64,000 bases of DNA from the NCBI RefSeq assembly GCF_000003815.2, contig NC_049993.1, forward strand, positions 13,948,178 through 14,012,177, read 5' to 3'. Below are positions 3,549 to 48,420 of this stretch, in pieces. Each line of letters begins with the position of its first letter. The stretch's first letter is position 1. Under the pieces are notes generated by a model. It was not told where the DNA came from and searched no databases. It saw only the letters and a list, made by a program, of their open reading frames with translations. Made by a program: the position numbers and the translations under genes. The stretch comes from Branchiostoma floridae. Lineage: Eukaryota; Chordata; Leptocardii; Amphioxiformes; Branchiostomatidae.

Positions 3549-6500
3549 TTACACAAAGTTACCCGGTTCAACTTGGCATATGAAGTGTCTGTATTCGTCG
3601 CAAACAGCGTCTGACCAATAACTGTGTCTGACCCATAACCTGTATAAAGGAACACAATCAGCCTTGTCACTCCGTGGTAACTTCCTCGGGTATCCCACAT
3701 GCCAGTTGTTGTACTTACCAAGTGGAGTACCATCTATCCACTCAAACTTTCCCTCTTCGCGTCGGTCGTGCAAGCCAATCCACGTACTAAACTTACTAAC
3801 CTTTTTTGGTTTGAAGGATACTAAGAATTCGTTAGTCTGGGCGTCTCGGGGCATGGCGAGGGTACCGCCGTCTTCACGACAGGTCGCGGCCGCTTGGCTG
3901 AAGGTTTTGGGTATTTCAAACAACTTGTAGCAGATCCCACGCCATTCCGTATGACCTCCTGGACAAAACACTGTGGAAAAAAACCTCAATGAAAAGCTGG
4001 CCGACTTGAGCTTCGCATGAATAAACAAAAACAAACAAACAAACAAACAAGACATACGATTACTACAGATTTCATCGACCTGATCCAAATTATAACATTA
4101 ATTTCACGTTAATAAAATTGTGTGCTTGACTTTTCATTTCATGATGTATATATGTGTGTTTTAGAGTAGACGTATCGGTATATAAAGAACGACAAAAATT
4201 GCCTTAAGATAGACCTATGTCTATTACATATGAATACCACTATAAGTAGGGGGCAATGTAATGTAAGGAGAAGGTACAGGCATTACGCTGTTTAACGTGT
4301 AACAGGGTAAGGAGGTACTTCTGATCACAGAGTAAAGGTAGCCTTACCTTTATCCGGCTTGCCCCGAATGGATGTTTGGGGACGTCCAGGGGGTCCGGCA
4401 GGTTTGGGACAAGTTTCCCTTCCTGGTAGTCCAGGCGGCCCAACTGGCCCTGGCAATCCTGGAGACCCCACAGGACCTCTGCTCCCCGGGGGTCCAGGTG
4501 GTCCAGCCGTGCCCGTCGGTCCCATGGGTCCAGCCAGTCCCATGGTCCCCTTTTCTCCTGGGGGTCCAGGGGGCCCAGGGACACCCGCCTTGCCAGCTTG
4601 ACCCATGGATCCAACCGGTCCCATGGGTCCCTTTTCTCCCGGAGGCCCAAGAGGCCCAGGAACCCCGGCCTTGCCATCCTGTCCCATGGGTCCAGCCGGT
4701 CCCGTGGGTCCAGCCGGTCCCGAGGGTCCAGCCGGTCCCATGGGACCCTTTTCTCCCGGGAGTCCAGGAGGCCCAGCAGACCCAGGGACTCCTGGCTGGC
4801 CAGCCGTGCCCATGGGCCCCTGCCCAGTCATGTTGGAAAGATTAAGTCCCATAGGTCTCCCCTTACATGTACCTGGAGATACAGAAGACACACACATGTC
4901 TGAAACTTCACGAACAGTATGTAAATTCAACAACGTGCAAAGAGTTCACGAATTATAAAAGCATTAATCAAAATTCAATTTAATTCATGTGAAATCTATA
5001 TGAATATGAAGAGTGTAATTTGTATCAGTGTGCGTTATAAGCCTGGTGCCTTGTGATTTTAGAAGATAAAACGTACGTTCCAACTCGGTCATTCGCAGTT
5101 CAGTCATCCCGTGTTGTTCTTCCATCTTCTCAGCAAGAGTGATCACCTTAACTGTGTCAAGATTTAAAAAAAAATATCACGTTCTGCGATCATGCTGTGA
5201 AATTCTGTAGAACTGGGTTTGTTATTGGAAACAAGTATAACTTACACATTATCCAGGGCATGGGGCCAAAGCACCCTTGTTTCATCTTTAAACAAAAATG
5301 GTAATAAAGACATTATTAAAATGGCGACGATTGTCTCTTACAAGCTTACTGGAGGTGAACAAAAGACAAACCAAGCCTGAGAAAGAATTGACTGGGTGTT
5401 AAGTTATTTAGTTTAGCAGCATTTGTGCTGACTTTTTTTGCCTTTTTGCCGTCGCATATTAGTTTTGGGGTCTACAGAGGATGTCATCCATAGAATTAAG
5501 TCTACGTGGCCTAACAAACATCGATTCATTTCGTCAGATTACCTCGCCAAGATTAGGATTTAAAAAACAAACAAAACAGCCTTTCCAGAATCAAGTTGTC
5601 AATTCGTTTATAGTCGTTCAAACATTACAATCATCTTTCTGCAATACATGTACAATAAAAACACATCAAACCTGCAAAGTATGGAAAGAGTACGGCAATG
5701 ACCACAGCGATCACAGTGGCTGTGGCTTGCCCGAACTTCTTGCAAAGGCGGAACCATTTGGTCTTCTTGTCCATCTCCGTGCCATAAACATCTGTTTAGG
5801 TAAGCAAAGACACTCGGTAACCCACCAGATACTTATATTAACATGATAGTACACTGGTAAGGTTTCGTATAGTCTGACGTCCATGATTCACCTAAAATGT
5901 GCCAAAAAGCAGATACTCAAGCAACTGTATGTGGTTTTGGAAACGGTCAGACATTTCAAACACCTTCTGGTGTCCTTAGTCAGTGACATGTAATAACAGA
6001 TGAAATTTCTTCAAACTAATAATCATTTATTGGATAGTCCCTCACGTGCATTAATGATATTTCCAATTCGTTGACCGAGCCTTTTCAATATCTACATCCG
6101 TAAAATGTGAAGGCATTGCTATCAGTCTCTGTGTTTATTTGTCCTGATGTGTGTTCTCAGCTCCACAATCGATATTTGAAGTCTAAGCACATTCTGGACA
6201 CTAACAGGAAGTTAGGTCAAAGGTGCTAAAATGTGAAGGAAATCGATCGAGTCTTTCCAACGCGCATGTCAGAATTGGCTTTGGGCAAGAAGAGCCCGAC
6301 ATTGAGTTTCTCGCTTTTACGTATGACAATGAAAACAGTAACTCTAGATAGTGCACGTGTGAAGACGTGTCCATTCGGCGCCTGTCACTGCAAATTACTC
6401 AACAGGCAGTAATTAGATGGAAGACTACTCTTAGTGAGACGTTCAGTGAGAATTTGAGGTAAGATGACTCGGGTGAGCTAACTGTTGCAAGATTTAACTT

Positions 6501-7575
6501 AAATACATTCCATCAATCAATCTTTACATACAGAAACGTTCCTTACGATAGAAATTAAGAGGAATTCTCAGGACGAAAGACGCATTATCTGTAGCTACTC
6601 CATATTATGCATTTTCCTCCTAAGGATTTGTGTTTGTCAGACAATCCCGTATGTACACGCAAATGATAAAAAATTCTAATTCCAACCCAAAGAAACAGCG
6701 AAAACAACATATCTATGCATTGTAGCTTGTTTTGTATCAACTAATGTAATTTGTCTCGCCTGTCTATAAGTGTTTTGATGATTCTTTAAAGCAAACATGA
6801 AAGATTATATTGCTGGCTTTTACTTAACAAGCAGAGGTTAGGCTCCGACTGTTTTTTAAAACGTTTTTAGTCATTTTTATCGGGCTTTCTATTTTGTATT
6901 GTATCTTGTATGTTATGTTGTGACAATACAAGATACAATACAAAATAGAAAGACTGATAAAAACGACTAAAAACGTTTAAAAAACAGACAGAGCCTAACC
7001 TCTGTTTGCAGAGTAGCTGGCTTGAAGAAACAATGGATGAGACGATGTCTTACCAGCTCTGGAGACGTACATGGTGTTTGGTATGTTCGCAGCAGCGTCC
7101 GCCACTGCCTTCCAATCAGTCGGAGCCTGCTGTGTGGGTGTGGTTCCTGGAGAAAATTTCAGAAAAGAGCATGAAGCCTAGAAATCTGTATAGTATGCTC
7201 AAAAGCTTATCATCAACATGTAATAATATTTTACGTAGGAATAATCTAACGACTCTATTTCATGGTACTAATGCTATGATGGGGCCTAACCAATATAGCC
7301 ATATGGAATTAAATGCAGACCGCATTCAATAAAGTCAAAATAAAGTAGAGAGAAAAGAGAGTAAAGAGAAAATCAAACATTAATTTTTGACATTATTTAA
7401 AAAAAAGGTTTATAGATATTCTCTACGAGCTGAGTCAGGGAAGATAAACAAATATCTACTTTACTACTTTTCTTGTCAAGGATGTAATCTTACTGAGCCG
7501 CCCAAAAATCCTACGGATCGAAATTGATTTACCTCCACTGTCCCCAGTCTGGGACTGCTGCTGCCCTCCCTGCAT
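3549..7575 (-). CDS. Membrane collectin-like receptor 1 (TM, coiled coil, collagen, CTLD)
   Basis: Six exons on the minus strand: 7575-7533, 7146-7054, 5791-5672, 5151-5077, 4872-4348 and 3970-3549. They total 1278 nt (425 aa), with every junction in phase 1 and GT-AG borders. Residues 1-45 are cytoplasmic ([11 protein letters not shown], then a 31-residue module with NTMYVSRAG). A basic stretch ([13 protein letters not shown]) precedes a transmembrane helix at about 66-84, which suggests type II topology. Residues 86-110 form a heptad-like stalk, 111-285 are Gly-X-Y collagen with a lone Cys in RETCPKPAG, and 286-425 a CTLD. The CTLD has long-form N-terminal cysteines, WIGLHD and WSD, but YPR where sugar-binding CTLDs have EPN. 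An alternative acceptor for the collagen exon at 4899 would add nine in-frame residues. The layout matches collectin-12-type receptors; the ligand is unknown. Confidence 0.85.
5914..6012 (+). repeat. Dispersed repeat ending in GTCAGTGAC
   Basis: A segment of about 90 bp (TACTCAAGCAACTG, GATTTTGG-like, GTCAGAC, CTTTCGTCAGTGAC in fuller copies). It occurs in an intron of each minus gene (also about 14150, 23600 and 32750), upstream of each first exon (about 8232, 17295, 26455 and 35875), at 44085 and, inverted, inside KRI1 near 59345-59430. It is non-coding and probably an old mobile element. Confidence 0.65.
6831..7006. repeat. Long intronic hairpin beside exon 2 of receptor 1
   Basis: Two arms of about 80 bp (about 6831-6913 and 6923-7006) are reverse complements with few mismatches, around a loop of about 10 nt. 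The ends read AGAGGTTAGGCTC / GAGCCTAACCTCTG. The hairpin lies in the intron, 47 nt beyond the exon-2 splice donor (transcript sense), and the same structure is at the same place in the other three minus genes. A diverged relative lies at 51115-51245, so it is probably a foldback DNA element. Transcribed, it would form a very stable stem next to a splice site. Confidence 0.85.
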
Positions 7576-11927: not shown

Positions 11928-14900
11928 TTACGTAAAGTTACCAGGTTCAACCTGGCATCTGAAGACGTGTTCAATATCGTCGCAAACAGTATCTCTCCAA
12001 CAGTAATTGAATTTCTGGTAAAGAACACAATCAGTCTTGTCACCCTCAGGTAACTTCATTGGGTGTCCCGGATGCCAGTTGTTGTACTTACCAAGTGGAG
12101 TACCATCCATCCACTCAAACTTTCCCTCTACGCGTTGATCGTGCAAGCCAATCCACATGTACATGTATACCACTGGCCCTTTCAATTTGAAGACTTTGAA
12201 CAAGTCGTTAGTCTGGGCGTCTCGAGGCATGGCGAGGGTACCGCCGTCTTCACGACAGGTCGCGGCCGCTTGGCTGAAGGTTTTGGGTATTTCAAACATC
12301 TTGTAGCAGATCCCACGCCATTCCTCATAACCTCCTGGACAAGACACTGTGGAAAATTCATGACCAAGACATAGGGTTAGCACAGATGTCATCGACCTGA
12401 TCCACTGATTCCAAAAACATTACTTTCACGTTGATAAAATTGTGTGCTTGACTTTTCATTTCATGATGTATATATGTGTGTTTTAGAGTAGACGTATCGG
12501 TATATAAAGAATGACAAAAATCGTCTTAAGATAGACCTATGTCTATTACATATGAAAATACCACTATAAGTAGGGGACAATGTAATGTAAGGAGAAGGTA
12601 CAGGCATTACGCTGTTAAACGTGTAACAGGGTAAGGAGGTACTTCTGATCACAGAGTAAAGGTAGCCTTACCTTTATCCGGCTTGCCCCGAATGGATGTT
12701 TGGGGACGTCCAGGGGGTCCGGCAGGTTTGGGACAAGTTTCCCTTCCTGGTAGTCCAGGCGGCCCAACTGGCCCTTGCAATCCTGGAGACCCCACAGGAC
12801 CTCTGCTCCCCGGGGGTCCTGGTGGTCCAGCCTTGCCCGTCGGTCCCATGGGTCCAGCCAGTCCCATGGTCCCCTTTTCTCCCGGAGGTCCAAGAGGCCC
12901 AGGAACCCCTGCCTTGCCATCCTGTCCCATGGGTCCAGCCGGTCCCGAGGGTCCAGCCGGTCCCGAGGGTCCAGCCGGTCCCATGGGACCCTTTTCTCCC
13001 GGGAGTCCAGGAGGCCCAGCAGACCCAGGGACTCCTGGCTGGCCAGCCGTGCCCATGGGCCCCTGCCCAGTCATGTTGGAAAGATTATGTCCCATAGGTC
13101 TCTCCTTACATGTACCTGGAGATACAAAAGACACGCACATGTCTGAAACTTCACGAATAGTATGCAAATTCAACAACGTGTAAACGTTGATAAAATCTAA
13201 AAGCATAATCTAAATGATCAAGAACATGTGAAATTTTACAAATGTTACAAAATAGACATTTGTATCAGTGTGTGGTATAATCCTGGTGCCTTGTGATTTT
13301 AGGAGATAAAACGTACGTTCCAACTCGGTTACTCGCAGCTCAGTCATCCCGTGTTGTTCTTCCATCTTCTCGGCAAGAGTGATCACCTTAACTGTGTCAA
13401 GATTAAAAAAAAAATACCACGTTCTGCAATCATGCTGTGAAATTCTGTAGAAATGGGTATGTTATTGGAAACAAATATAACTTACACATTATCCAGGGCA
13501 TGGGGCCATAGCGCCCTTGTTTCCTCTTTAAACAAAAATGGCAATAAAGACATTATTGAAATGGCGACGATTGTCTCTTACAAGCTTACTGGAGGTGAAC
13601 AAAAGACAAACCAAGCCTGGGAAAGAATTGACTGGATGTTTAGTTATTTAGTTTAGCAGCATTTGTGCTGACTTTCTTTGCCCTTTTGCCGTCGAATATT
13701 AGTTTTGGGGTCTACAGAGGATGTCATCCATAGAATTAAGTCTATGTGGCCTAACAAACATCAATTCATTTCGTCAGATTACCTCGCCAAGATTAGGATT
13801 TAAAAAACAAACAAAACAGCCTTTCCAGAATCAAGTTGTCAATTCGTTTATAGTCGTTCAAACATTACAATCATCCTTCTGCAATACATGTACAATAAAA
13901 ACATCTAACCTGCAAAGTATGGAAAGAGTACGGCAATGACCACAGCGATCACAGTGGCTGTGGCTTGCCCGAACTTCTTGCAAAGGCGGAACCATTTGGT
14001 CTTCTTGTCCATCTCCGTGCCATAAACATCTGTTTAGGTAAGCAAAGACACTCGGCAACCCACCAGATACTTATATTAACATGATAGTACACTAGTAAGG
14101 TTTCGCATAGTCTGACGTCCAAGATTCACCTAAAATGTGCCAAAAAGCAGATACTCAAGCAACTGTATGTGGTTTTGGAAACGGTCAGACATTTCACCTT
14201 CTGGTGTCCTTAGTCAGTGACATGTAATAACAGATGAAATTTCATCAAACTAATAATCATTTATTGGATAGTCCCTCACGTGCATTAATGATATTTCCAA
14301 TCCGTTGACCGAGCCTTTTCAATATCTACATCCGTAAAATATGAAGGTATTGCTATCAGTTTCTGTGTTTGTTTGTCCTGATGTGTGTTCTCAGCTCCAC
14401 AATCGATATTTGAAGTCTAAGCACATTCTGGACACTAACAGGAAGTTAGGTCAAAGGTGCTAAAATGTGAAGGAAATCGATCGAGTCTTTCCAACGCGCA
14501 AGAAGAAGGTAACAGTATCCCTGACCTACCCGACATTGAGTTTCTCGCTTTTCCGTATGACAATGAAAACAGTAACTCTAGATGGTGTGAAGACGTGTAC
14601 CATTCGGCGCCTGTCACTGCAAATTACTCAACAGGCAGTAATTAGATGGAAGACTACTCTTAGTGAGACGTTCAGTGAGAATTTGAGGTAACATGACTCG
14701 GGTGACCTAACTGTTGCAAGATTTAACTTAAATACATTCCACCAATCAATCATTACATACAGAAACGTTCCTTTCGACAGAAATTAAGAGGAAATCTCAG
14801 GACGAAAGCAGTAGCTACTCCATATTATGCATTATCCTCGAGCCTCCTAAGGATTTGTGTTTGTCAGACAATCCCGTATGTACACGTAAATGATAAAAAA

Positions 14901-16637
14901 TTCTAATTCCAACCCAAAGAAACAGCGAAAACAACATATCTATGCATTGTAGCTTGTTTTGTATCAACTAATGTAATTTGTCTCGCCTGTCTATAAGTGT
15001 TTTGATGATTCTTTAAAGCAAACATGAAAGATTAAAGCTCGCTGGCTTCTACTCAACAAGCAGAGGTTAGGCTCCGACTGTTTTTTAAAACGTTTTTAGT
15101 CGTTTTTATCGGGGTTTCTATTTTGTATTGTATCTTGTATGTTATGTTGTGACAATACAAGATACAATACAAAATAGAAAGACTGATAAAACCGACTAAA
15201 AACGTTTAAAAAACAGACAGAGCCTAACCTCTGTTTGCAGAGTAGCTGGCTTGAAGAAACAATGGATGAGACGATGTCTTACCCGCTCTGGAGACGTACA
15301 TGGTGTTTGGTATGGTCGCAGCAGCGTCCGCCACTGCCTTCCAATCAGTCGGAGCCTGCTGTGTGGGTGTGGTGCCTGGAGAAAAATTCAGAAAAGAGCA
15401 TGAAGCCTAGAAATCTGTATAGTATGCTCAAAAGCTTATCATCGATATGTAATTTAATTTTAAGTAGGAAAAATCTAACGACTCTATTTCATGGTACTAA
15501 TGCTATGATGGGGCCTAACCAATATAGCCATATGGAATTAAATGCAGACCGCATTCAATAAAGTCTATACGGAAGTGATACCTAAAATAAGTCTCTAGGT
15601 CGCAGCATATAACTCTGTGGATGACATCCCTACAGACTCGGAGAGCGCGAAAAAACACACACAACAAATTTAAAAATAGGCAAAAAAACAAGATGCACAA
15701 ACTTTCAAAATACAAACCATGAACGTTGTAATACAGTAATAAAAGCCTACAGGTTTTTCAAAAAGTGCCGAAAGTTACACTAGTGTGGTAGCTTAGTATA
15801 GCTGCAATTTTACACATGCTGCCTTGTTGATTTTTGGTATTTTCATGTGATGTGTTACAAAGATTTTTTTTTTAAATCATGCAGGCGAATTTGAAAATCA
15901 ATGCACGTACGCGTGTTATCCATACAACTAACTTTATGACCATACCGTTGTATCAAAACTTTGATGTCGGCTCTTGGACAATTTGAAGAGAAAATCAAAC
16001 ATATTTTTGACATTATTAAAAAAAAAAGGTTTATAGATATTATCTACGAGCTGAGTCAGGGAAGATAAACATATATCTACTTTACTACTTTTCTTGTCAA
16101 GGATGTAATCTTACTGAGCCGCCCAAAAATCCTACGGATCGAAACATAGAAAATATCACTGTATGGTCATATAACTACCGAGTCGTTGATAACACACCAG
16201 AGTGCAACTTTCTTGGAAGAAAATATAAAAGAGAAAGTAAAGAGTAAAGAGAATTTTTTTCACAAAGAAAATTTTTCATGAGAACTATAACCAGTGCAAT
16301 GGCCGCGTGTTTGCCTTGCATTCGGTAGGTCGGGAGTTCGATCCCTCCCCGGCCGAGTAATACTAAAGACTTTATCAATGGAACTTTGTGCTTTCTCTGC
16401 TTAGCACTCAGCATTTGGGAAAGAGTATGGAAGTTGAACACATGCACCACTACCAGTGGACTAGCCCCCTGCTGTAGTGATTGCACAAAGTTGTGTGGCC
16501 CAGGGCTACTGAAACGGAGATGGGTGCCGCCCCATGCGCCATCACAACAGGCCTTAGAGGAAGGAACTTAGACTTGACATGAGAATTGATTTACCTCCAC
16601 TGTCCCCAGTCTGGGACTGCTGCTGCCCTCCCTGCAT
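11928..16637 (-). CDS. Membrane collectin-like receptor 2 (TM, coiled coil, collagen, CTLD)
   Basis: Exons on the minus strand: 16637-16595, 15375-15283, 14029-13910, 13391-13317, 13115-12672 and 12346-11928. They total 1194 nt (397 aa), all phase 1. The cytoplasmic, TM and stalk exons match gene 1 in length. The collagen exon (residues 111-258) is 27 residues, nine Gly-X-Y triplets, shorter than in gene 1, and keeps the Cys in RETCPKPAG. The CTLD (259-397) has [13 protein letters not shown], a distinctive loop ([18 protein letters not shown]), HPM at the EPN position, and WRD in place of WND. It ends GNFT where its sisters end GNFV. It is the most diverged CTLD of the minus group. The 5' flank and first exon are intact, so it looks functional. 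It is probably a type II surface receptor like its neighbours. Confidence 0.83.
15060..15234. repeat. Long intronic hairpin beside exon 2 of receptor 2
   Basis: Same foldback as at 6831-7006, with arms of about 80 bp ending AGAGGTTAGGCTC / GAGCCTAACCTCTG. It ends 49 nt from the exon-2 donor at 15283. The stem is conserved although its sequence has small differences from the other units. Confidence 0.85.
16285..16575 (+). mobile_element. tRNA-derived SINE in intron 1 of receptor 2
   Basis: The head carries pol III-like boxes (ATGGCCGCGTGTTTGC as A-box region, GGGAGTTCGATCCCTCCC as B-box), followed by a non-tRNA body to about 16575. Units 2 and 4 have it (also 34890-35180), while unit 3 does not. 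In unit 1 the whole region is deleted. The head is not a functional tRNA because no acceptor stem can be paired around it. Confidence 0.75.
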
Positions 16638-24300: not shown

Positions 24301-25808
24301 ACTCCATATTATGCATTATTCCCCTAAGGATTTGTGTTTGTCAGACAATCCCGTATGTACACGTAAATGATAAAAAATTCTAATTCCAACCCAAAGAAAC
24401 GGCGAAAACAACATATCTATGCATTGTAGCTTGTTTTGTATCAACTAATGTAATTTGTCTCGCCTGTCTATAAGTGTTTTGATGATTCTTTAAAGCAAAC
24501 ATGAAAGATTATATCGCTGGCTTCTACTTAACAAGCAGAGGTTAGGCTCCGACTGTTTTTAAAAGTTTTTAGTCGTTTTTATCGGGCTTTCTATTTTGTA
24601 TTGTATCTTGTATGTTATGTTGTGACAATACAAGATACAATACAAAATAGAAAGACTGATAAAAACGACTAAAAACGTTTAAAAAACAGACAGAGCCTAA
24701 CCTCTGTTTGCAGAGTAGCTGGCTTGAAGAAACAATGGATGAGACGATGTCTTACCCGCTCTGGAGACGTACATGGTGTTTGGTATGTTCGCAGCAGCGT
24801 CCGCCACTGCCTTCCAATCAGTCGGAGCCTGCTGTGTGGGTGTGGTGCCTGGAGAAAAATTCAGAAAAGAGCATGAAGCCTAGAAATCTGTATAGTATGC
24901 TCAAAAGCTTATCATCAATATGTAATAATATTTTAAGTAGGAAAAATCTAACGACTTTATTTCATCGTACTAATGCCATGATGGGCCTAACCAATATAGC
25001 CATATGGAATTAAATGCAGACCGCATTCAATAAAGGCTATACGGAAGTGATACCTAAAATAAGTCTCTAGGCCGCAGCATATAACTTTGTGGATGACATC
25101 CCTACAGACTCGGAGAGCGCGAAAAAACACACACAACAAAAAAATAAATGGGAAAAAAAAGAAGATGCACAAACTTTCAAAATACAAACCATGAACGCTG
25201 TAATACGAATTGAAACGACAAACCATGGTATCAAAGCCAACAGGTCTTTCAAAAAGTGCCGAAAGTTACACTAGTGTCACAGTGGTAGCTTAGTATAGCT
25301 GCAATTTTACACATGCTGCCTTGTTGATTTCTGGTATTTTCATGTGACGTGCTACGAAGAGCTTTCGTTTTTTTGTGTGAAAACATTTAGACGAATTTGA
25401 AAGCAATGCACGTGCGCGTGTTATCCATAAAACTTACTTTATTACCATACCGTTATATCAAAACTTTGACGTCGGCTCTTGGACTATTTGAAGAGAAAAT
25501 CAAACATTTTTGACATCATTTAAAAGAAAAGTTTATAGACATCATTTACAAGCTGAGTCAGAGAAGATAAACAAATACTTTTCTTGTCAAGGATGTAAGC
25601 TGACTGAATTTTAGAAGGAGCCGCCCAAATATCCTACGGATCGAAACATAGAAAATGTCACTGTATGGTCATATAACTACCGAGTCGTTGATAACACCAG
25701 AGTGAAATTTTTTTGGGGAAAAGGAGTTAATTGTTTACAAGTTACTAGTATGACGATTCATTTACCTCTATTGTCCCCAGTCTGGGACTGCTGCTGCTCT
25801 CTCGGCAT
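21332..25808 (-). CDS. Membrane collectin-like receptor 3 (TM, shortened stalk, collagen, CTLD)
   Basis: Exons on the minus strand: 25808-25766, 24848-24756, 23476-23357, 22841-22791, 22585-22043 and 21729-21332. They total 1248 nt (415 aa), all phase 1. The first exon reads [14 protein letters not shown], unlike MQGGQQQ in its sisters. The stalk exon is 51 nt rather than 75 because of a 24-nt in-frame deletion that removes eight residues around EEQHG. The collagen exon is the longest of the minus group (residues 103-283), and the usual Cys near its end is Gly (RETGPKPAG). The CTLD (284-415) keeps the N-terminal cysteines, WIGLHD and WSD. It has a shortened loop before WIGL ([10 protein letters not shown]) and lacks the W-x-x-G segment before the EPN position ([10 protein letters not shown]). 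It is probably still expressed, but trimer cross-linking and sugar binding may differ. Confidence 0.82.
24535..24707. repeat. Long intronic hairpin beside exon 2 of receptor 3
   Basis: Same foldback as at 6831-7006, ending 49 nt from the exon-2 donor at 24756. The left arm has a small deletion relative to its sisters (GTTTTTAAAAGTTTTTAG) while the right arm is unchanged. Confidence 0.85.
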
Positions 25809-36707: not shown

Positions 36708-37197
36708 ATGCCGGGAGGGCAGCAGCAGTCCCAGACCGGAGACACAGAAGGTAAGGCCACAGCAAGTAGATTTTATGGATTGCATCCGCACCCTTGATAA
36801 TTTTCATCTCATTTCAGAAAAAAAAATTTTTTTCTTCTTCGGAGATGGTCAACATGACGATAAAGTCCCAGAATTGGAAACATGTTGTGTTGCAGCCTAA
36901 TGATTGTAATTGTAGAATTGACCCTAGTGGCACCTTCTTAAATACAGACGCGTTGGGCAAACCTATATCCTTCATAAACAGAGAAGTATATATATATATA
37001 TATTTGTCTTTCACATTGTTCAGATAAGATTTAAACAACGATAGTTACACTATTTAGTCACACCGTTTTCCGTTATTTTGAATGTACGTTGAAAAGAAAG
37101 TACAATGAAACTTAACGTAAAACAAAGGCAGAATCTGTAAGGAATTAGGTCTAAGATATTTCATGCCAATTGTATTTTATCTGTAGATTGTCGAAAA

Positions 37198-37450
37198 GTT
37201 TACGTCGCGTGGCGTGATGGTAAGGTGTTTGGTCTAGAACCCAAAAGTCCCGGTCTCGAATGCCATAATTCTGATGTTGTGCCCATAGGGAAGGCTATGT
37301 ACACGAATTTCCTTACTTCTCTCAGGTGGAAAGTAGTCTTCGGTTACGGACGCCAGCGGATAGAATGTTAAATGTAGGTCCCATGTTTGAGGAGCACCTC
37401 AAGCAAGAAAAACAATCAACTTCACCTAGGCCTATTCCAAAAAAAGTAGG
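37198..37450 (+). mobile_element. tRNA-derived SINE in intron 1 of gene 5
   Basis: The head has an A-box-like TGGCGTGATGG and B-box-like GGTCTCGAATGCC. It is followed by TTGTGCCCATAGGGAAGG and CACTTCTCTCAGGTG-like body segments typical of deuterostome SINE cores. It has no equivalent in gene 6, so it inserted after the two genes separated. Confidence 0.65.
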
Positions 37451-37779
37451 GGTCCTTCCCAATATGACTGGATGAAAGTCCAATACAAGCCTGGTGTGTT
37501 ACGCCTTGAGGTGGTTTACCTGTTATACAATACAAACAAACAAACAAACAAACAAACAATCAAAAATATGTATCATGTCAGTTCATTATCTGCTGAATAT
37601 GTGAGTGGTTTACGTTTTCATATCCCCTGGATCTTAATTTGGCCACATCATAGCATTGGAACCAGGACATAGACCCGTTAGAACTGTTTTCATGCTGATA
37701 GTTCATGTCAACTTTTGAGTTTCTTGCTGCAGCATATGACAAATACTTCATGATTTTTCCAATTTTCCTCTTGGTCTAG

Positions 37780-39863
37780 GCACCACATCCACACAGCAGG
37801 CACCGACTGATTGGAAGTCCCTCGCGGACGCCGCTGCGAACATACCCAACAACATGTACGTCTCCAGCGCGGGTAAGACATTGTGCACTTATATTTTCCA
37901 CATGCTATCTGTTGATAACCGGTGCAGAAAATCCAGGTACAGGTACTGTCCAGGTCCACAGGATTAGGTCCAGTTGTATGTGAATGGGCAAAGCGCAACA
38001 CAATGGAATCTGTTTTATGGTGTATCCGATTCCCACTGTTGTTTCAAAATCTCAAATGATTCATATTGATTTCTTAATTTTCACAATTGTTATGTAGGTT
38101 CAGGAACCACACCCACACAGCAGGCACCGACTGATTGGAAGTCCCTCGCGGACGCCGCTGCGAACATACCCAACAACATGTACGTCTCCAGCGCGGGTAA
38201 GACATTGTGCACTTATATTTACCTTTGCCAGAATGGCTAAGGTTATGTTTTGGGCTTGTGAGTCTGTGTGTGTGTCTGTGTGTCTGTCTGTCTGTCTGAT
38301 AACAGCATAACTCAAGAAGTCTTGGATGGATCCCGATAATATTTGGTAGGTGGGTAGGGGTCTGGAAAACGAAGGTCAAGTTCGATAATGGGCCCCCTAG
38401 CGGCTTGCTAAGGTACTGCAGCAGAACCTCAATTTTTGATATCTCGTGTTCTGGACATGCTGTGATCATGATTTTTAAGTGGTAGATAGCCCTCAAGGCA
38501 GAGAGTAAGTGCTGTGAGTTTGGGCCCCCTAGCGGCTTTTTTGGAACTGCAGGCGCCGGTTTCCTTTCAAACTTTGGATGAGAATAACTCTACAACGTGT
38601 TGACGGATCGTCATGATTTTTGGTATGTAGATAGAATGAGTGATGACTTACATAATGGTATACTAAATATGCAAATCAGCAGCTAATTTGCATAATTAAT
38701 GAGGAAAAATTATAAATCCACAACATTCCATGATAGGACTTTCAAACTTGTCACATATGTAGCTGGGAAGGAGAGAAATGTCGACAGATATCAATTATGC
38801 AAATGATGACCTCATTTGCATAATTAATGAGAAAATATGAACATGTAGACGGATCATCATGTTTTTTGTATGTAGGTAGCGTAAGTGAAGACCTACATAA
38901 TGAGATAACAATTATGCAAATCAACAGCTAATTTGCATAATTAATGAGGATGTTTCATAAATTCACTACATTCCATGATAGGGCTTTAAAACTTGTCACA
39001 TATGTAGCTGAGAAAGAGAGAAATGTCAATACATATTTATCATGCAAATGATGATCTCATTTGCATAATTAATTAGAAATTATTAACGTGTTGACGGATC
39101 GTCATGATTTTCGGCATGTAGATAGCCTAAATGAAGACTTATGTAATGTGATACTTATTATGCAAGTTAACAGCTAATTTGCATAATTGATTAGGAAAAG
39201 TTCATAAATCCACTGCATTCCATTATAGTACTTTCATCAAAGTTGTCACATATGTAACTGAGAAAGAGGGAAGAGAGTAAGAGGTGTATTTAAAGACTTT
39301 GAAAGAGAATAAGTCAAGAATGGATCAAAGGATCATCATGATTTTTGGTATGCTGATAGCTTAAGTAATGCTTGATACAATTTGATATCAATTAATTATA
39401 AATTGGGATCTAATTTGCATAATAAATGCCGAAATTTTATAAACCAACTCCAAGCATTTAATTATAAAGAAAATGAAATGAGTAACGCATTTGTCTACAG
39501 ACATCATTCTACATAACAAACCTGGTTTATTTGGCAAAGGTATGTGTTCGTGGAACTCTAGTTTCCACATGCTATCTGTTGATAACCGGTGCAGAAAATC
39601 CAGGTACAGGTACTGTCCAGGTCCACAGGATTAGGTCCAGTTGTATGTGAATGGGCAAAGCGCAACACAATGGAATCTGTTTTATGGAGTATCCGATTCC
39701 CACTGTTGTTTCAAAATCTCAAATGATTCATATTGATTTCTTGATTTTCACAATTTTCCTGTAGGTCCAGGAACCACACCCACACAGCAGGCACCGACTG
39801 ATTGGAAGTCAGTGGCGGATGCCGCTGCGAACATACCCAACAACATGTACGTCTCCCGAGCAG
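37780..39863 (+). repeat. Triplicated 93-bp cytoplasmic-module exon of gene 5
   Basis: Three exons of exactly 93 nt (37780, 38104 and 39771) encode near-identical 31-residue modules ([20 protein letters not shown]). Exon plus following intron forms a repeated block of about 324 bp. The second intron is the same as the first except for an insertion of about 1.34 kb at 38221-39563. Each module has one Tyr; no canonical ITAM or ITIM spacing is present. Confidence 0.85.
38221..39563. mobile_element. Composite insertion with short inverted ends and about 245-bp internal tandem repeats
   Basis: The uninterrupted intron (ACTTATATTTTCCACATGC near 37887) shows where the insert lies. It begins ACCTTTGCCA and has TGGCAAAGGT at 39532-39541, an inverted pair typical of non-autonomous elements. 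A GT/CTGT microsatellite is near 38262. From about 38640 a unit of about 245 bp (GCTAATTTGCATAATTAATG ... GTCACATATGTAGCTG) is repeated about three times. A diverged fragment of the same family is at about 53765-53870 in a KRI1 intron. Confidence 0.75.
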
Positions 39864-41718
39864 GTTAGATCCTTACATCGAGTAAATAGAACAAGTTGAC
39901 ACGTTTATTTGGAACAGCATCTGTCAGTACCAATACCTATACGGTAGTGTAAAGTGAACAACTGCTTAGAAGAAGGTTACAGGCTGTCGATCACCAAGGT
40001 TGAATAAAACACTTGGTTGTGTACAAAGAATCTTGTTCTTCAGTGACTTACCAAACTGATAAAACAATTCACTTAAAACTATTTAATAGAAAAGTATCTT
40101 TTCTTGATCAAACAGATGCTTATGGCACGGACAAGAAGACCAAATGGTTCCGCCTGTGCAAGAGGTTTATGCAAGCCACAGCCGCTGTGGTCGTTGTGGT
40201 CATCGCCGTACTACTGCCATACTTTGCAGGTTAGAGGTTTGTTTTCTTGTCTTGCAGAAAGACAATTGTAATATTCTAGACAAAACATTATAACGGATGA
40301 CAGGTCAATTATTGACAAGATGTTTCATGCCGGAAAATCGCGTTGTTGTGAAAAATAAAATCTAGATAAATGAATGTAACTATCACATCAACTATCAATG
40401 ACGTGTACCTAACTCATCATTACAAACTGTTGTATAGTTAGCGTCGGTAATTTTTGATTTTAAGTAAAATTATTAGTATATCTTAAGTATGTTTTAAAAA
40501 TTGTAATAACTTTTTAAACAATGTTTAATAACGAAGTTTGTAGACGCCAACACAATTCAGGCTAAAATGCCTGCAAAGTGGTGGTTTGATAAAGTTCAAA
40601 GTATTGCAGAAAGTGGCAATTGTCGGTTGTTGTTGCTTTTTGCCTTTTTCAGTTAAGGTGACCATTCTTGCTGAGATGGTGAGTGAGATGAAGGAACAAC
40701 ACGGGTTGACAGATCTAGAGCTGCTAGTTACCAAGTTGGAACGTACGTAAGATGTCTATGTGTCACACTGCATCAGTTTTTTTTTAATACAATTCGTAGA
40801 CCGATACAAAATTCAGGACTTTTGAGATGTTTAAGATGTTGAATTTTGCAATATTTCATGAAGTTTCAGACATGTTTGTGTCACATGTCTGTCCAGGAAA
40901 GGGGATACCTATGGGGCAGACCCCTCCGTACAAGGCTGGCCCCGCCGGGCCTGTTGGACCTCCGGGCCCACCTGGTCCTCCTAGCTGTTCTGGAGAGAAG
41001 GGCCCCATGGGACCAGCTGGGCCCATGGGACAGACTGGCAAGAATGGACTTCCTGGGCCCCCTGGACCTCCGGGAGAAAGGGGGCCCATGGGCACGGATG
41101 GCCAGCCAGGAGTCCCTGGGCCTCCTGGACTCCCAGGAGAAAAGGGGTCCATGGGACCGGCTGGATCCATGGGACCGGCTGGATCCATGGGGCCGGCTGG
41201 ACCCATGGGACCTACTGGTAAGGCTGGAGTCCCTGGGCCTCCTGGACTCTCAGGAGAAAAGGGGTCCAAGGGACCGGCTGGACCCAGGGGACCGGCTGGA
41301 TCCAGGGGACCGGCTGGACCCATTGGACGTACTGGTAAGGCTGGAGTCCCTGGGCCTCCTGGACATCCGGGGCAAAATGGGCCTATGGGACCGGCCGGAC
41401 CCATGGGACCAACTGGACACAGGGGAGTACGTGGCAAGGCTGGAGTCCCTGGGCCTCCAGGACATCCGGGACAAAAGGGGCCCATGGGACCGGCCGGACC
41501 CATGGGACCAACTAGACACAGGGGACAACGTGGCAAGGCTAGAGTCCCTGGACGTCCAGGACCCCCGGGGAGCAGAGGGTCCGTGGGGTCTCCAGGATTA
41601 CCGGGACCCAAACCTGCCGGACCACCCGGACGTCCCGACACCGTTCGGGGTAAGCAAGAAGACGTAGTGATTATCAATAATAATGTGCTCCAATATTTCC
41701 AGATGTGATCTGGCTTAC

Positions 41719-41914
41719 GTAATAGCCTCCGTTGCAGTCTTCGAACGAGCTGTTTTTTTTTGCGTGTGTGTGTGTGTGGGGGGGGGGGGGGTATTTTCAA
41801 CGTTGGCAGTTCTCTTGTGCCGGCTAATTCCCTTTCCTAACGTTGAAAATCGCGAACGAACGCTCCCCCCCCAAAAAAAACAGCCCCGTTCGAAGACTGC
41901 AATGGAGGCTACTT
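41719..41914. repeat. Foldback element between collagen and CTLD exons of gene 5
   Basis: Terminal inverted repeats of about 40 bp (TAGCCTCCGTTGCAGTCTTC ... GAAGACTGCAATGGAGGCTA) with TG, G and C homopolymer runs inside, and an inner inverted pair around AACGTT. The orthologous element is at 47737-47910 in gene 6, so it predates their duplication. It is absent from the minus-strand genes. Confidence 0.8.
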
Positions 41915-42386
41915 AAGTAAGTAGTTTGCTCGCATAATGATTAATATGTAATTCTATTTTCATCTTGACTATTGTCGATAAATTTTCAACAGAGGTCGCT
42001 TGGGATGTCCTCAAGTTGATACAAGGTTAAACCTTCATCGAAGCTACTGCGACCTGTGATGAAGACGGTGGTACCCTAGCCATGCCCCGAGACGCGCGGA
42101 CCAACTCTCTCGTCGTCTCAATGATAAAGTCAAAGATGAACAATTCAGTATTGATTGGCTTACATGATAAACGAGGAAGGGGAAAGTTTGAGTGGGTGGA
42201 TGGTACTCCACTTGGGAAGTAAAACGCGTGGGCTCCCGGATTCCCAAACATGTTGTCAAAGAGGACTATGTTTGCAGTCTGCGTTCTTTATTGGCGTATA
42301 TCTGAAATTGACGCTATTACACGGATTGCGGAATTCATCTCTATTTTATGTGTCAAGTCGTCCTTAATCATTCCAAGGTTTCCTGA

Positions 42387-43395: not shown

Positions 43396-43825
43396 CCTTA
43401 CTAGATACGACTACTCTCTAAGCAGAGGTTGGTGGGGAAGAGTGTGATCTTCTCATGAGTCCCTTAGATACTATTCATAATATGCACATAATTGTTTTCT
43501 TGGGCAATCCCATTCATAAATGTAAATAATGATAAAATGTTTGATCTTATTGAAAAGAAACAGCGAATATGCATTAAAGCTTGTTTTGTATCAACTAATG
43601 TAATTTGTCTCGACTCTAAACGTCCTTTCATATAATCTCTTTCAAGTAAATCAAGGACATTATGTAGTGGCCTTGAGTAGATGTGAGAGGGTGCCCAGTG
43701 TCTGGGGCTGCGCTCAGACCGGCCAGTGTTCACCAGGTGTAAGACGTGTCATTTTTCTGTCCGGAAACCTGTACAAGTGGCACCATGCCGGGAGGGCAGC
43801 AGCATGGATGAAGTCAACAAAATTA
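43396..43825 (+). pseudogene. Orphan promoter/exon-1 block fused to KRI1 flank sequence (copy a)
   Basis: The 5' block typical of plus-strand genes leads to an ATG at 43785 and the start of exon 1 (MPGGQQH). It then changes, without a splice donor, into sequence like the KRI1 3' flank (GTCAACAAAATTAGTACAC; compare 52080). The frame stops after eight codons. It is a chimeric duplication remnant; the real first exon of gene 6 is 1 kb further on. Confidence 0.75.
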
Positions 43826-43904
43826 GTACACAAAGTTGGGAGACAGATTTCGTCATTTTTTACACTCTCTGTCTGTGACTCTGATTACGTACGGGCTCAT
43901 TTGT

Positions 43905-44395: not shown

Positions 44396-44828
44396 AAATT
44401 CTCTCACATATGATATTTGTGATTCTTTCTAACTACATAGCTACTCTCCAAGCAGAGGTGGGTGGGGAAGACTATGATGTTCTCATTTGTAGCGTAGCTA
44501 CTAATCATAATATGCACATTTTCTAAGAATTGTTTTCCTTTCAAACAATCCCATACATATGTGTAATTTATGATAAATATATCATTTTACCCCAAAGAAA
44601 CAGTGAATATGCATTTTAGCTTGTTTTGTATCAACTAATGTAATTTGTCTCGACTTAAAAAATTCGTTTGATATCATCTCTTTCAAGTGAATCAAGGACA
44701 TTATACAGTGTCCTTGAGTAAATGATGTAAGAGAGTGCTCAGTGTCTGAGGCTTCGCTCAGACCAGCCAGTGTTGACCAGGTGTAGGACGTGCCATTTTT
44801 CTGTCCGGAAACCTGTACAAGTGGCACC
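44396..44828 (+). promoter_or_regulatory. Putative promoter and 5' UTR of gene 6
   Basis: Same block as before gene 5: TCTCCAAGCAGAGGTGGG, a TATA-like ACATTATACAG near 44698 about 130 bp before the ATG, then conserved untranslated sequence ending TGGCACC. Function is inferred from conservation and position. Confidence 0.45.
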
Positions 44829-47785
44829 ATGCCGGGAGGGCAGCAGCAGTCCCAGACCGGAGACACAGAAGGTAAGGCCACAGCAAGTAGATTTTATGAA
44901 TCACATCCGCGCGCTCATTTATCTTTGTATCATTGATAATATTTTGTGCTTCTAACTGCAGCATATTATAGATATTTTTTTGTTTCTCATGTTGTAATCT
45001 CCCAAATTTCCTTTAGGTCCAGACACTACACCAAGACAGCAGGCTCCGACTGATTGGAAGTCCCTCGCGGACGCCACTGCGAACATACCCAACAACATGT
45101 ACGTCTCCAGCGCGGGTAAGACGTGCATTTTCCCCATGCTATGTGTTGATAACCAGTGATAACCTACAGCATTCCATAACATAGCTTTGTCATGGAATGC
45201 TTTAGATATAATATCTTACACAATAAATTATTCACATTCCTGTGTATTGATATTGCAGATTTTAAGATACCAAAAATAGATTTGACTATGTTTTAGATAG
45301 ATTTGACAGCTCTCATAATGCTAAGATAGGCAAATACATAAAATATTTCAATTTGATTGCATTGTAGTTAGAAAACATAATGGAACTCCCGTTTAGCCCC
45401 ACCTGATTGTATAAAGGTTTTTGTTATTTTATATTCTTGATTCAGTTGAATTTTAGAATTAACTATGTATCCCTATTTTGTAATTTATAATTGATTATAC
45501 GAAAGTCACCGTACTTTTTGCCGTATCAATAAATCTTACTGTATTGATTGTCACAATTTTTCTGTACTGGTCCAGGCACCACACCCACCCAGCAAGCTCA
45601 AGCTGATTGGACGTCAGTGGCGGACGCCGCTGCGAACATACCCAACACCATGTATGTCTCCCGAGCAGGTTAGACAATCTTTCATCCCCGTTTTTTTCTG
45701 TTTTGCTTTTGGACAGACGAGGACAATATGGCACTACACTCAAGCTAGTAACTTATATTAACATACACAGTACTGATACAAAGCAAAGGTAGACTCTTTT
45801 ACCTCCCCGACATTTTTACACCTGGATGGAGTGTTAGTGTGTAAAGTGCCTTTTCCAAGGGCTCAACGTCGGAGGCACGGCGAGTATCGAACTCGGGATC
45901 TCTAGTCTAGATTCCGAACCGAACGCTCTACCAGTTACGCCACACACGACGACACCGATGAACAATAAATAATTTTTAAAAGTCTTGAATGGAAGGTTTT
46001 GTCTCTTTCCAATCTTGGATTTCACAGCGTCTTACTATTTTGTCTCCTTACATCGAGTTAATTGCTCATGAGTTGTAGGTTTAGGACTGCATCTGTTAGC
46101 AGCGACACCAATGCAAAGTGAACCAGCGAGAATTGCTTTGAAGGACGCGACAGACTGTCGTTCACCGAACAAAAGACTTCGTTCTGTACACATAATCTTG
46201 TTATGTAGTGACTTACCAATCTGATAAAACTATTCACGTAAAACTATTTGATATAAAATCATCTTTTTTTGATCAAACAGATGCTTATGGCACGAAGATG
46301 GACAAGAAGACCAAATGGTTACGCCTGTGCAAGAAGTTTATGCAAGCCACAGCCGCTGTGGTCGTTGTGGTCATCGCCGTACTATTGCCATACTTTGCAG
46401 GTTAGACGTTTGTTTTCTTGTCTTGCAGAAAGATTATTGTAATATTTTAGATAAAACGTTGTAACGGATGGCAGGTCAATTATTAACAAAAAGTTTCATG
46501 CCAGAAAATCACGTTGTTGTGAAAAATAAAATCTAGATAAATGAATGTAACTATGACATCAACTATCAATGACGTGTACCTAACTCATCATTACAACTGT
46601 TGTATAGTTAATGTCGGTATTTTTTGATTTTAAGTAAAATTATTCATCATCATCATCATCGCGGGCTGCTTGCCCGGACCAATTAAAAATTATTAGTCAA
46701 TTTTAAGTAGACTTTTAATAAGTTTTAAAACTTGTTATAAGTTTTTAAACAATGTTCAATAACGAAGTTTGTACACACCAACACAAACCAGGCTAAAATG
46801 CCTGCAAAGTGGTGATTTGATAAAGTTCAAAGTATTGCAGAAAGTGGCAATTGTCGGTTGTTGTTGCTTTTTGCCGTTGTCAGTTAAGGTGACCACTCTT
46901 GCTGATATGGTGTCTGAGTTGCAGAAACAACACGGGTTGACAGATCTAAAGCTGCGAGTAACCGAGTTGGAACGTACGTAAGATGTCTATGTGTCACACT
47001 GCACCAGTTTGTTATATGCAATTCGTAGACTGATACAAAATTCACGACTTTTGATATGTTTAAGATGTTGAATTTTGTAATATTTCATGAAGTTTCAGAC
47101 ATGCGTGTGTCACATGTCTGTCCAGGAAAGGGGATACCTATGGGACAGACCCCTTCGTACAAAGCTGGCCCCACCGGGCCTGTTGGACCTCCGGGCCCAC
47201 CTGGTCCTCCTAGCCGTTCTGGAGAGAAGGGGCCCATGGGACCAGCTGGACCCATGGGACAGGCTGACAAGAATGGAATTCCTGGCCCCCCTGGACCTCC
47301 GGGAGAAAAGGGGCCCATGGGCACGGATGGCCAGCCAGGAGTCCCTGGGCCTCCTGGACTCCCAGGAGAAAAGGGGTCAATGGGACCGACTGGACCCATG
47401 GGACCGGCTGGACTCATGGGACCGGCTGGACCCATGGGACCTACTGGTAAGGCTGGTGTCCCTGGGCCTCCAGGACATCCGGGACAAAAGGGGCCCATGG
47501 GACCGACCGGAACCATGGGACCGGCTGGACCCAAGGGACTACGTGGCAAGGCTGGAGTCCCTGGACGTCCAGGACATCCGGGACAAAAGGGGCCCATGGG
47601 GCCTCCAGGATTACCGGGGCCCAAACCTGCCGGACTACCTAGACGTCCCGAAACATACATTCTGGGTAAGCAAGAAGAGGCAGTGACTATCAATGATAAT
47701 GTGCTCCAATATTTCCAGATGTGATCCGGCTTAAGTAATAGCCTCCGTCGCAGTCTTCGAACGGGGCTGTTTTTATTATGCGTGT

Positions 47786-47816
<31 letters not shown>

Positions 47817-48420
47817 GTCAACGTTGGCTAAGTTCTCTTGTGCCGGCTAACTCCCTTTCCTAACGTTGAAAAAAACAGCCCCGTTCGGAGACTGCAACGG
47901 AGGTTACTTAGTAAGACTGTAAGTGGTTTCCTCGTATAATGATTAATATGTAATTCTTTTTTCATCTTAACTATTGTCAATTAATTTTCCACAGAGGCGG
48001 CTTTGGATGTTTGCAAAAAGGTCTTACAAGGTTAAACACCTTCCAGCACTCAAAACCTTCATCGAAGCTACTGCGACTTGTGATGAAGACAGTGGTACCC
48101 TCTTCATGCCCCGAGACGCCCAGAACAACTCTCCCGTCGTCTCAGTGATAGGGTCAAAGATGATTAATTCAGTATGGATTGGCTTACATGATAAACGAGG
48201 AAGGGGAAAGTTTGAGTGGGTGGATGGTACTCCGCTTGGAAAGTACAACGCGTGGGCTCCCGGATTCCCAAACATGTTGTCAAAAAGGCCTAGGTTTGCA
48301 GCCTGCGTTTTTTATTGGCGTATATCTGAAACTAACACTATTATGTGGCATGACACGGATTGCGGAATCCATCTCCATTTAATTTGCCAAGTGGTCCTTG
48401 ATCATTCAAAGGTTACCTGA
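44829..48420 (+). CDS. Membrane collectin-like gene 6 with two cytoplasmic modules and a truncated CTLD
   Basis: Exons on the plus strand: 44829-44871, modules 45023-45115 and 45576-45668, TM exon 46281-46400, stalk 46884-46973, collagen 47126-47665, then the CTLD. From the acceptor equivalent to that of the minus genes (47995), the phase-1 frame meets TAA at 48033. An internal acceptor (CTTCCAG, exon 48047-48420) restores the frame and gives 450 aa. This CTLD would lack the N-terminal CPGG / GICY hairpin but keep the four core cysteines (ATCDED, AACVF, TDCG, LICQ), WIGLHD, FPN at the EPN position and WHD. The cytoplasmic tail has two 31-residue modules (MYVSSAG, MYVSRAG), followed by a basic segment and a TM helix. 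It may be a remodelled functional gene or a decaying one; transcripts would decide. Confidence 0.6.
45795..45965 (-). mobile_element. tRNA-derived SINE in an intron of gene 6
   Basis: The minus strand shows A-box-like TGGCGTAACTGGTAGAGC and B-box-like GAGTTCGATACTCGCC, then a SINE-core-like TTGAGCCCTTGGAAAAGGCA. Gene 5 has no copy at this place, so the insertion is specific to gene 6. Confidence 0.75.
46645..46685. mobile_element. 41-bp insertion with 9-bp target duplication in gene 6
   Basis: The insert, a CAT repeat followed by GCGGGCTGCTTGCCCGG, is flanked by AAAATTATT at 46636-46644 and 46686-46694. The empty site is in gene 5 near 40470 (AAAATTATTAGT). It looks like a severely truncated retroposon end. 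Confidence 0.75.
47737..47910. repeat. Foldback element between collagen and CTLD exons of gene 6
   Basis: Ortholog of 41719-41914, with terminal inverted repeats TAGCCTCCGTCGCAGTC / GACTGCAACGGAGGTTA and a TG-then-G run inside. It sits in the intron just before the altered CTLD acceptor. Confidence 0.8.

What the first reader, a model, noticed from the sequence alone, without database searches (positions are those of the whole stretch)
3549..48420. Clustered family of type II membrane collectin-like receptors in two opposed arrays
Six genes or gene remnants share exon 1, cytoplasmic module, basic segment plus TM, coiled coil, Gly-X-Y rod and CTLD. Four lie on the minus strand in direct 9-kb repeats and two on the plus strand, head-to-head. 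This architecture is known from single-copy vertebrate collectin-12. A tandem, diversifying array suggests an expanded innate-recognition family.
Basis: partly seen in the sequence, partly recalled or inferred. Interest (0 to 1): 0.75.

Follow-up and report, generated by a model that had tools for sequence, protein, structure and literature searches.

The report
Amphioxus membrane lectin receptor array
A cluster of four apparently intact and two damaged genes predicts cell-surface receptors with a collagen stalk and a lectin-like head, and they share their inner tail with a very large family of receptors, scattered over the same genome, that can carry other kinds of head.

Summary
Four minus-strand copies (exon 1 at 7575, 16637, 25808, 35252) give unbroken frames of 434, 406, 424 and 434 aa: exon 1, 31-aa cytoplasmic cassette, basic segment plus TM, coil, 36-47 uninterrupted Gly-X-Y triplets, CTLD; every intron GT-AG, phase 1. 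Two plus-strand copies are open to the end of the rod but have broken CTLDs. The genome (513 Mb) fits Branchiostoma floridae by recall.

"Collectin-12-like" fits the layout, not the kinship. The CTLDs group with a gene on another contig of the same genome, not with CL-P1, and four of five calcium/sugar-site residues are replaced. Amino-acid change is concentrated in the CTLD.

The larger finding lies outside the window. The cassette exon recurs at 150 scored places (359 candidates) on 19 contigs. In 20 loci inspected, the parts behind it are CTLDs with or without collagen, a kringle, or LDLR class B repeats; one kringle chain is complete and in frame. The array is one branch of a shuffled family of predicted membrane receptors. 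No expression data were available and no mechanism was tested.

The parts
3549..7575 (-). gene m1, open: ex1 7575-7533, cassette 7146-7054, TM 5791-5672, coil 5151-5077, collagen 4899-4348, CTLD 3970-3549; 434 aa
   Evidence: splice borders, phase, open frame; Pfam
11928..16637 (-). gene m2, open: ex1 16637-16595, cassette 15375-15283, TM 14029-13910, coil 13391-13317, collagen 13142-12672, CTLD 12346-11928; 406 aa; CTLD and 3' flank are 15-19% from the other copies, up to 29% in 200-column windows
21332..25808 (-). gene m3, open: ex1 25808-25766, cassette 24848-24756, TM 23476-23357, coil 22841-22791 (24 nt shorter, in frame), collagen 22612-22043, CTLD 21729-21332; 424 aa
30380..35252 (-). 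gene m4, open: ex1 35252-35210, cassette 33978-33886, TM 32623-32504, coil 31982-31908, collagen 31730-31179, CTLD 30801-30380; 434 aa; 21 differences in 3176 positions from m1 between cassette and CTLD
36708..42386 (+). copy pA: ex1 36708-36750, three cassettes 37780-37872, 38104-38196, 39771-39863, TM 40116-40229, coil 40653-40742, collagen 40870-41649 (open), CTLD 41993-42386 broken (two stops, frame loss)
   Evidence: constraint on the open part
44829..48420 (+). copy pB: ex1 44829-44871, two cassettes 45023-45115 and 45576-45668, TM 46281-46400, coil 46884-46973, collagen 47099-47665 (open), CTLD 47995-48420 out of frame with the rod
   Evidence: Pfam Lectin_C on the CTLD frame alone
43700..43804 (+). 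remnant of promoter and start of exon 1
49736..50896 (+). two further remnants of promoter/exon 1 (49736-49840 and 50856-50896); a piece like the 3' flank of pA follows at 51255-51705

Best explanation
The locus is an expanded array of type II membrane receptors in an amphioxus. The N-terminal tail (exon 1 plus one to three copies of a 31-aa tyrosine cassette) is predicted to lie in the cytoplasm, followed by a basic segment, one membrane helix, a short coil, a collagen rod and a CTLD. All introns are phase 1, so cassettes, stalks and heads can be added or swapped without breaking the frame. The array is one branch of a genome-wide family built on the same exon 1 plus cassette. Most likely working (inferred): rod and coil make trimers that hold three CTLDs out from the cell. 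The CTLDs bind a ligand by a surface that no longer uses the standard calcium/sugar site, and this domain is diversifying. Binding clusters the tails, whose repeated tyrosine motif (NPxY in many relatives, NTMY/NNMY here) recruits adaptor proteins for uptake or signalling. Copy number is driven by tandem duplication, gene conversion and local decay. Shown: anatomy, frames, constraint, CTLD excess of amino-acid change, loss of the sugar-site residues, genome-wide reuse of the cassette. Inferred: topology, trimers, ligand, signalling, immune role.
For: Frames and phases. Coding constraint. CTLD-specific non-synonymous excess: m1-m4 p 0.0075, m3-m4 p 2.4e-5, m2-m4 p 2.7e-16; synonymous rates do not differ for the first two pairs and are raised for m2-m4 (p 0.0015). 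TM helix mean hydropathy 2.4, preceded by [15 protein letters not shown], no hydrophobic window near the N terminus. Uninterrupted triplets 45, 36, 47, 45 in m1-m4. Cassette genome-wide: 150 scored of 359 candidates, 9 of the 150 in the window, all 150 without a stop. 43 of 44 distinct cassettes with readable borders in the loci (9 of the 44 are the window's own) are multiples of 3 with AG/GT; 6 further hits had no clear border. Cassette exon identity between contigs 0.85 against 0.62-0.64 for flanks and 0.58-0.59 for shuffled flanks (17 representatives); pN/pS 0.52 over 87 pairs of 14 cassettes. 18 of 37 scored cassettes on C1-C9 have a CTLD signature within 10 kb downstream on the same strand, random placement 0.07. 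Mosaic identity, as by conversion.
Against: No transcripts, so no exon junction is proven. The tyrosine motif of the window copies is not a textbook NPxY, ITIM or ITAM. The N-terminal part of m2-m3 has 1 synonymous and 8 non-synonymous changes, against the general picture. Concentration of amino-acid changes in the long loop is seen only for m1-m4 (5 of 38 codons v 0 of 102, p 0.0012), not in the other five pairs (p 0.28-0.67). For m1-m4 the CTLD does not differ from its 3' flank in overall divergence (p 0.81). CTLD dN/dS of 0.76-1.50 may be relaxed constraint. Only one genome was available. Structure prediction was never obtained.
Confidence: 0.62

Rival explanations
1. These are amphioxus orthologues of vertebrate collectin-12 that multiplied locally and bind sugars and modified lipoproteins in the same way.
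For: Same order of parts: tail, TM, coil, collagen, CTLD. PMC6701420 (passages read) describes coil, collagen-like and carbohydrate recognition domains in a membrane-bound CL-12.
Against: CTLD tree joins window CTLDs with C16 of the same genome (97/92), p-AU 0.037 against a clade with CL-P1, long branches present. CL-P1 keeps QPD, E and WND while all four window CTLDs lose four of the five residues. The coil is 17-25 aa in m1-m4. The tail cassette is shared with amphioxus receptors that show no collagen.
Confidence: 0.07
2. The collagen-CTLD pairing is shared by descent with soluble collectins (CL-11, SP-D type), and membrane anchoring by the cassette exons came later.
For: CL-11 is the best single-CTLD match of the m4 CTLD, 60.4 bits, E 1.9e-15. 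CL-11 plus SP-D lie with the amphioxus rows on one side of the tree (58/91, weak).
Against: The nearest relatives of the window CTLDs in the tree are amphioxus cassette CTLDs, most of them without collagen. A QPN-type sister CTLD scores codakine 74.6, aggrecan 72.1, SP-D 70.1, CL-11 65.1 and CL-P1 54.5 bits, so the affinity is to CTLDs in general. C17 collagen genes form a separate pair (100/99).
Confidence: 0.1
3. The array is mostly decaying duplicates; the fast CTLD change is relaxed constraint rather than adaptation.
For: Both plus copies have broken CTLDs, a relative on C15:5.67 Mb has a truncated CTLD match, and promoter remnants exist.
Against: All four minus copies are open from start to stop, with 36-47 perfect Gly-X-Y triplets. 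N-terminal part and rod stay constrained in most comparisons of the same genes. CTLD framework residues (cysteines, WIGL) are kept in all four.
Confidence: 0.2
4. The cassette is part of a dispersed repeat element that happens to lie in introns, not a receptor exon.
For: At least 150 dispersed copies; lancelets have high transposon diversity (PMC4284660, abstract and passages).
Against: Similarity drops at the splice sites, 43 of 44 lengths are multiples of 3, copies precede a CTLD on the same strand far above chance, and a complete in-frame chain exists for a kringle gene.
Confidence: 0.03
5. Receptors that bind a microbial or self protein through the CTLD and act as an inhibitory/activating set like vertebrate NK-complex lectins.
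For: Type II layout, loss of the calcium site, tandem diversifying copies.
Against: No ITIM or ITAM in the tail; collagen rods are not found in NK-complex receptors (recalled); no expression data.
Confidence: 0.2

Closest known systems
Collectin-12 (COLEC12, CL-P1, SRCL)
   Same: Membrane-anchored, coil, collagen-like domain, C-terminal CTLD
   Different: Sugar/calcium site kept in CL-P1 and lost here; separate in the CTLD tree; much shorter coil (length of the CL-P1 coil recalled); cassette-built tail; multi-copy array
Soluble collectins (SP-D, CL-11)
   Same: Collagen rod plus CTLD; CL-11 is the best single-CTLD match in the structure database
   Different: No TM or tyrosine tail in soluble forms (recalled); EPN site intact there
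Amphioxus cassette receptors on other contigs (L029, L031-L034, L038, L040-L045, L048, L050)
   Same: 31-aa cassette, phase-1 borders, exon 1 of the type [14 protein letters not shown] where it was found, a [14 protein letters not shown] CTLD in many
   Different: Several with a heptad stalk instead of collagen; several keep EPN/QPD; L042 and L043 carry LDLR class B repeats, and C181 (L035-L036) a kringle, instead of a CTLD
NK-complex type II C-type lectin receptors
   Same: Type II CTLD receptors in tandem clusters with loss of the calcium site (recalled)
   Different: No collagen rod there; ITIM/ITAM-type motifs there, not here
Lancelet exon shuffling with 1-1 phase bias (PMC4284660, section 14 and passages read)
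   Same: General process that explains the modular exons
   Different: The words transmembrane and cytoplasmic do not occur in its main text; supplements not seen

Membership tests
Collectin-12 orthologue | CTLD groups with CL-P1 CTLDs | tested here: not met
   window joins C16 gene 97/92; forced clade p-AU 0.037 (single test, long branches present)
Collectin-12 orthologue | type II membrane layout with coil, collagen and CTLD | tested here: met
   (topology predicted only)
Collectin-12 orthologue | sugar/calcium site QPD...E...WND | tested here: not met
   YPR, HPM, -PM, HPR; A/T/S/A; WSD, WRD, WSD, WSD in m1-m4
Collectins in the wide sense | Pfam Collagen and Lectin_C in one chain | tested here: met
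   one transcript not shown
Collectins in the wide sense | CTLD shares descent with collectin CTLDs | tested here: inconclusive
   CL-11 best single-CTLD match; weak placement, support 58/91
Amphioxus cassette receptor family (defined here) | exon 1 plus phase 1-1 31-aa cassette with conserved tyrosine | tested here: met
ITIM/ITAM immune receptors | YxxL/I/V motifs in the tail | tested here: not met
   window cassettes read [24 protein letters not shown]
NPxY endocytic receptors | NPxY in the tail | tested here: inconclusive
   NPMY in 20 of 44 distinct cassettes, none of the nine in the window
Functional lectin | calcium-dependent sugar binding | not testable with these tools
   residue loss suggests not; binding assay needed

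The most novel reading that the evidence does not exclude
Amphioxus runs a genome-wide plug-in receptor system: one signalling front end (exon 1 plus one to eight tyrosine cassettes) is coupled by phase-1 exon shuffling to interchangeable stalks (heptad coil or collagen) and heads (CTLD with or without sugar site, kringle, LDLR class B), giving a large diversifying set of type II recognition receptors. The window array is the branch that traded sugar binding for another ligand.
Probability: 0.5. Interest if true: 0.78.

Novelty: new variant of a known kind. Interest (0 to 1): 0.62.

Why it matters
Expansion of C-type lectins and exon shuffling in lancelets are known in general. A single conserved tail cassette behind different heads would make that repertoire one testable system: a common adaptor, a common readout, and a natural set of ectodomain swaps in the sister group of the other chordates. 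It also shows that a collectin-12-like layout can arise apart from collectin-12 and with a lost sugar site.

Tried and rejected
Collectin-12 orthology was tested by tree, database score and site residues. The tree and the residues speak against it; the database score does not decide (CL-11 is the best single-CTLD match and CL-P1 scores like other collectins; the higher totals of mannose-receptor-type chains are sums over several domains, whose best single stretches score 32.6 and 38.7 bits in the two shown). A small extra exon between TM and coil (window m4 about 32116-32079) was considered and dropped because I found by eye no border that keeps the frame. The 'repeat element' reading of the cassette was tested and not upheld. 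Long-loop concentration of changes was tested in all six pairs and holds for m1-m4 only. False duplication of haplotypes was considered: m1-m4 identity falls to about 82-86% on the 5' side of the tract, which does not fit two haplotypes of one block, but long reads would settle it. Rfam gave no hit. The first CTLD tree held one mis-framed row (out_L001); it is not used, and one search replaces it. One search leaves out that row and six others (C5_shortcoll, C10_b, C7b, C2c, L005, L006) and takes in seven vertebrate chains. In one search the lengths of C3 and C6 for the random control were rough guesses; the 37 cassettes and 74 sites were copied by hand, whose listings hold 150 of 359 candidates and 100 of 227 sites. 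The output was cut in the middle; its loci L042-L045 were looked at again. Loci outside the window were picked as search hits, some because no CTLD was near, so the 20-locus tally is not a rate; L048 and L050 were judged free of collagen from the open-frame listing only. A genome count of the second TM type did not complete, nor structure prediction. Huang et al. 2008 (Genome Research) is recalled and not held.
Full report
What is there. The window is contig C15, 13948178-14012177, of a 513,431,437-base genome in 431 contigs. I read it as Branchiostoma floridae from assembly size and gene style; that name is recalled and no call confirms it. Self-comparison shows four minus-strand repeats about 9 kb apart and two plus-strand copies, head to head across about 1.5 kb between exon 1 of m4 and of pA.

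Exon chains. In every minus copy the chain exon 1 (43 nt), cassette (93), TM (120), coil (75, or 51 in m3), collagen (552, 471, 570, 552) and CTLD has AG/GT borders and only phase-1 introns, and reads 434, 406, 424 and 434 aa without a stop. The m3 coil is shortened by 24 nt and stays in frame. Plus copies pA and pB hold three and two cassettes and are open through the rod. Their CTLD exons are broken. The rods of m1-m4 hold 45, 36, 47 and 45 uninterrupted Gly-X-Y triplets; those of pA and pB are interrupted. Pfam supports Lectin_C in m1-m4 and pB and Collagen in m1, pA and pB, the ones tested. A single strong hydrophobic segment follows a basic stretch, with no N-terminal signal-like window, so the predicted topology is type II.

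Selection. Nei-Gojobori counts give low dN/dS for the N-terminal part and rod in most comparisons (0.15-0.61, and 0 for the N-terminal part of m1-m4), with one contrary case (m2-m3 N-terminal part, 2.46, on 1 synonymous and 8 non-synonymous changes). CTLD values are 0.76-1.50. Against the rest of the same gene pair, CTLD non-synonymous change is raised for m1-m4 (p 0.0075), m3-m4 (2.4e-5) and m2-m4 (2.7e-16), the three pairs tested, while synonymous change does not differ for the first two and is also raised for m2-m4 (0.0015). The m2 CTLD and 3' flank are 15-19% from the other copies overall and up to 29% in 200-column windows, whereas m1 and m4 differ at 21 of 3176 positions from cassette to CTLD although two copies lie between them. 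This fits gene conversion. In m1-m4 all five changed residues lie in the long loop (5 of 38 codons v 0 of 102, p 0.0012); the other five pairs show no such bias. For pA v pB the open part still shows some constraint (N-terminal part p 0.07, rod p 0.051, together p 0.0077), so a lectin-less membrane collagen cannot be excluded.

Sugar site. Aligned to SP-D, the five side chains of calcium site 2 (positions recalled; E and N of EPN, E of SEDC, N and D of WND) are Y/H/gap/H, R/M/M/R, A/T/S/A, S/R/S/S and D in m1-m4. C16 has N, R, A, R, D. The four vertebrate collectin chains keep EPN or QPD, E and WND, and three amphioxus CTLDs of the tree (C13, C10_L007, C14_L003) keep all five, others part of them. 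The reading EPN mannose-type, QPD galactose-type is recalled.

Kinship. With solved CTLDs of CL-P1 (two), CL-11, SP-D, MRC1, PLA2R and IgY receptor in the tree, window CTLDs form a clade (96/95) joined by the C16 gene (97/92). Holding them with CL-P1 costs 18.2 log units, p-AU 0.037; the program warns of long branches. CL-11 and SP-D (93/93) lie on the amphioxus side of a weak branch (58/91). In the structure database CL-11 is the best single-CTLD match of m4 (60.4 bits; CL-P1 50.3), so kinship with soluble collectins in the wide sense is open. The two C17 collagen genes form a separate pair (100/99). Collagen stalks therefore occur with more than one CTLD lineage.

The cassette outside the window. 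As DNA it has 40 scored matches of 87 candidates. As protein it has 150 scored of 359 candidates on 19 contigs, each of the 150 with E 5e-5 or better and no stop, 9 in the window. Exact codon matches to [10 protein letters not shown] number 227, with 0 for the reversed control. Of 37 scored cassettes on C1-C9, 18 have such a site within 10 kb downstream on the same strand; 6 have one upstream (tandem arrays), 1 on the opposite strand, and random placement gives 0.07. In the fetched loci and window, 44 distinct cassettes had readable borders (9 of them the window's own) and 43 are 87-96 nt and multiples of 3; the other is a misread 79-nt piece of L047, and six further hits had no clear border by the script's rule. 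Their tyrosine reads NPMY in 20, NTMY in 10, NALY in 7, NNMY in 6, none in 1. Identity between contigs is 0.85 in the exon and 0.62-0.64 in flanks, single flank pairs reaching 0.81-0.87.

Parts behind the cassette. I looked at 20 loci outside the window. Nine have a CTLD with no collagen seen (L031, L032, L033, L038, L041, L044, L045, L048, L050). Four have collagen plus CTLD (L029, L034, L040 with a short rod, L052 with a truncated CTLD match). Two have collagen and no CTLD in the fetched span (L039 with L047, L049). Two have LDLR class B repeats (L042, L043; six exons tested, E 1.1e-8 to 0.045, three over the Pfam cut-off). One has a kringle (L035 with L036, E 1.3e-24). Two are undetermined (L037 with L046, L051). 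They were chosen as hits, some because no CTLD was near, so this is not a rate. The kringle gene reads in frame from exon 1 through two cassettes, TM and heptad stalk to the stop. For the other loci one-gene continuity rests on strand, order and distance only. L050 carries eight tandem cassettes.

Literature. PMC4284660 (section 14 and passages) reports extreme exon shuffling with 1-1 phase bias in lancelets and fast turnover of CTL genes. PMC10140915 (passages) gives 300 CTLD-containing genes for B. floridae. The word collectin does not occur in the main text of PMC11312191 or PMC5752451, of which I saw passages. None of ten searches, read as listings plus these passages, showed a paper on this tail cassette or on a collagen-CTLD array in amphioxus. 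The library is open-licence PMC only, so this does not show that none exists.

Mechanism. Shown: anatomy, frames, constraint, CTLD-specific amino-acid change, site loss, genome-wide reuse of the cassette. Inferred: type II topology, trimerisation by rod and coil, a calcium-independent ligand, clustering of tyrosine tails that recruit adaptors for uptake or signalling, an immune role.

Noticed in passing
L035-L036 (C181:1-20000): Membrane kringle gene on the same tail chassis, complete in frame; a second kringle with its own stalk, TM and cassette lies convergent on the opposite strand.
   Followed up: yes
L042 (C9:25.08 Mb) and L043 (C11:15.91 Mb): LDLR class B repeats behind the cassette, TM and heptad stalk.
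   Followed up: partly
L050 (C2:142500-149300): Eight tandem cytoplasmic cassettes, seven with NPMY and one with NPMF, before one CTLD.
   Followed up: partly
window 60782-63010: Non-LTR retroelement remnant on the minus strand: endonuclease and reverse transcriptase matches, next to N stretches.
   Followed up: partly
window 38594-39272: Tandem array of a 245-base unit, 2.7 copies, in the intron between cassettes 2 and 3 of pA.
   Followed up: no
window 41650-41708 and 47666-47724: If the rod donor is not used, pA and pB read on into similar short C-terminal tails ending NVLQYFQM; a possible lectin-less form.
   Followed up: no
L049 (C5:4.01 Mb) and L039 (C15:17.92 Mb): Cassette plus TM plus collagen with no CTLD in reach; the head is unknown.
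   Followed up: partly
L051:2-907: Long minus-strand open frame that looks like beta-propeller (NHL-like) repeats by eye, about 5 kb from a cassette; probably a separate gene.
   Followed up: no
window 992-1091, 52431-52530, 60272-60779, 63022-63953: Stretches of N.
   Followed up: no
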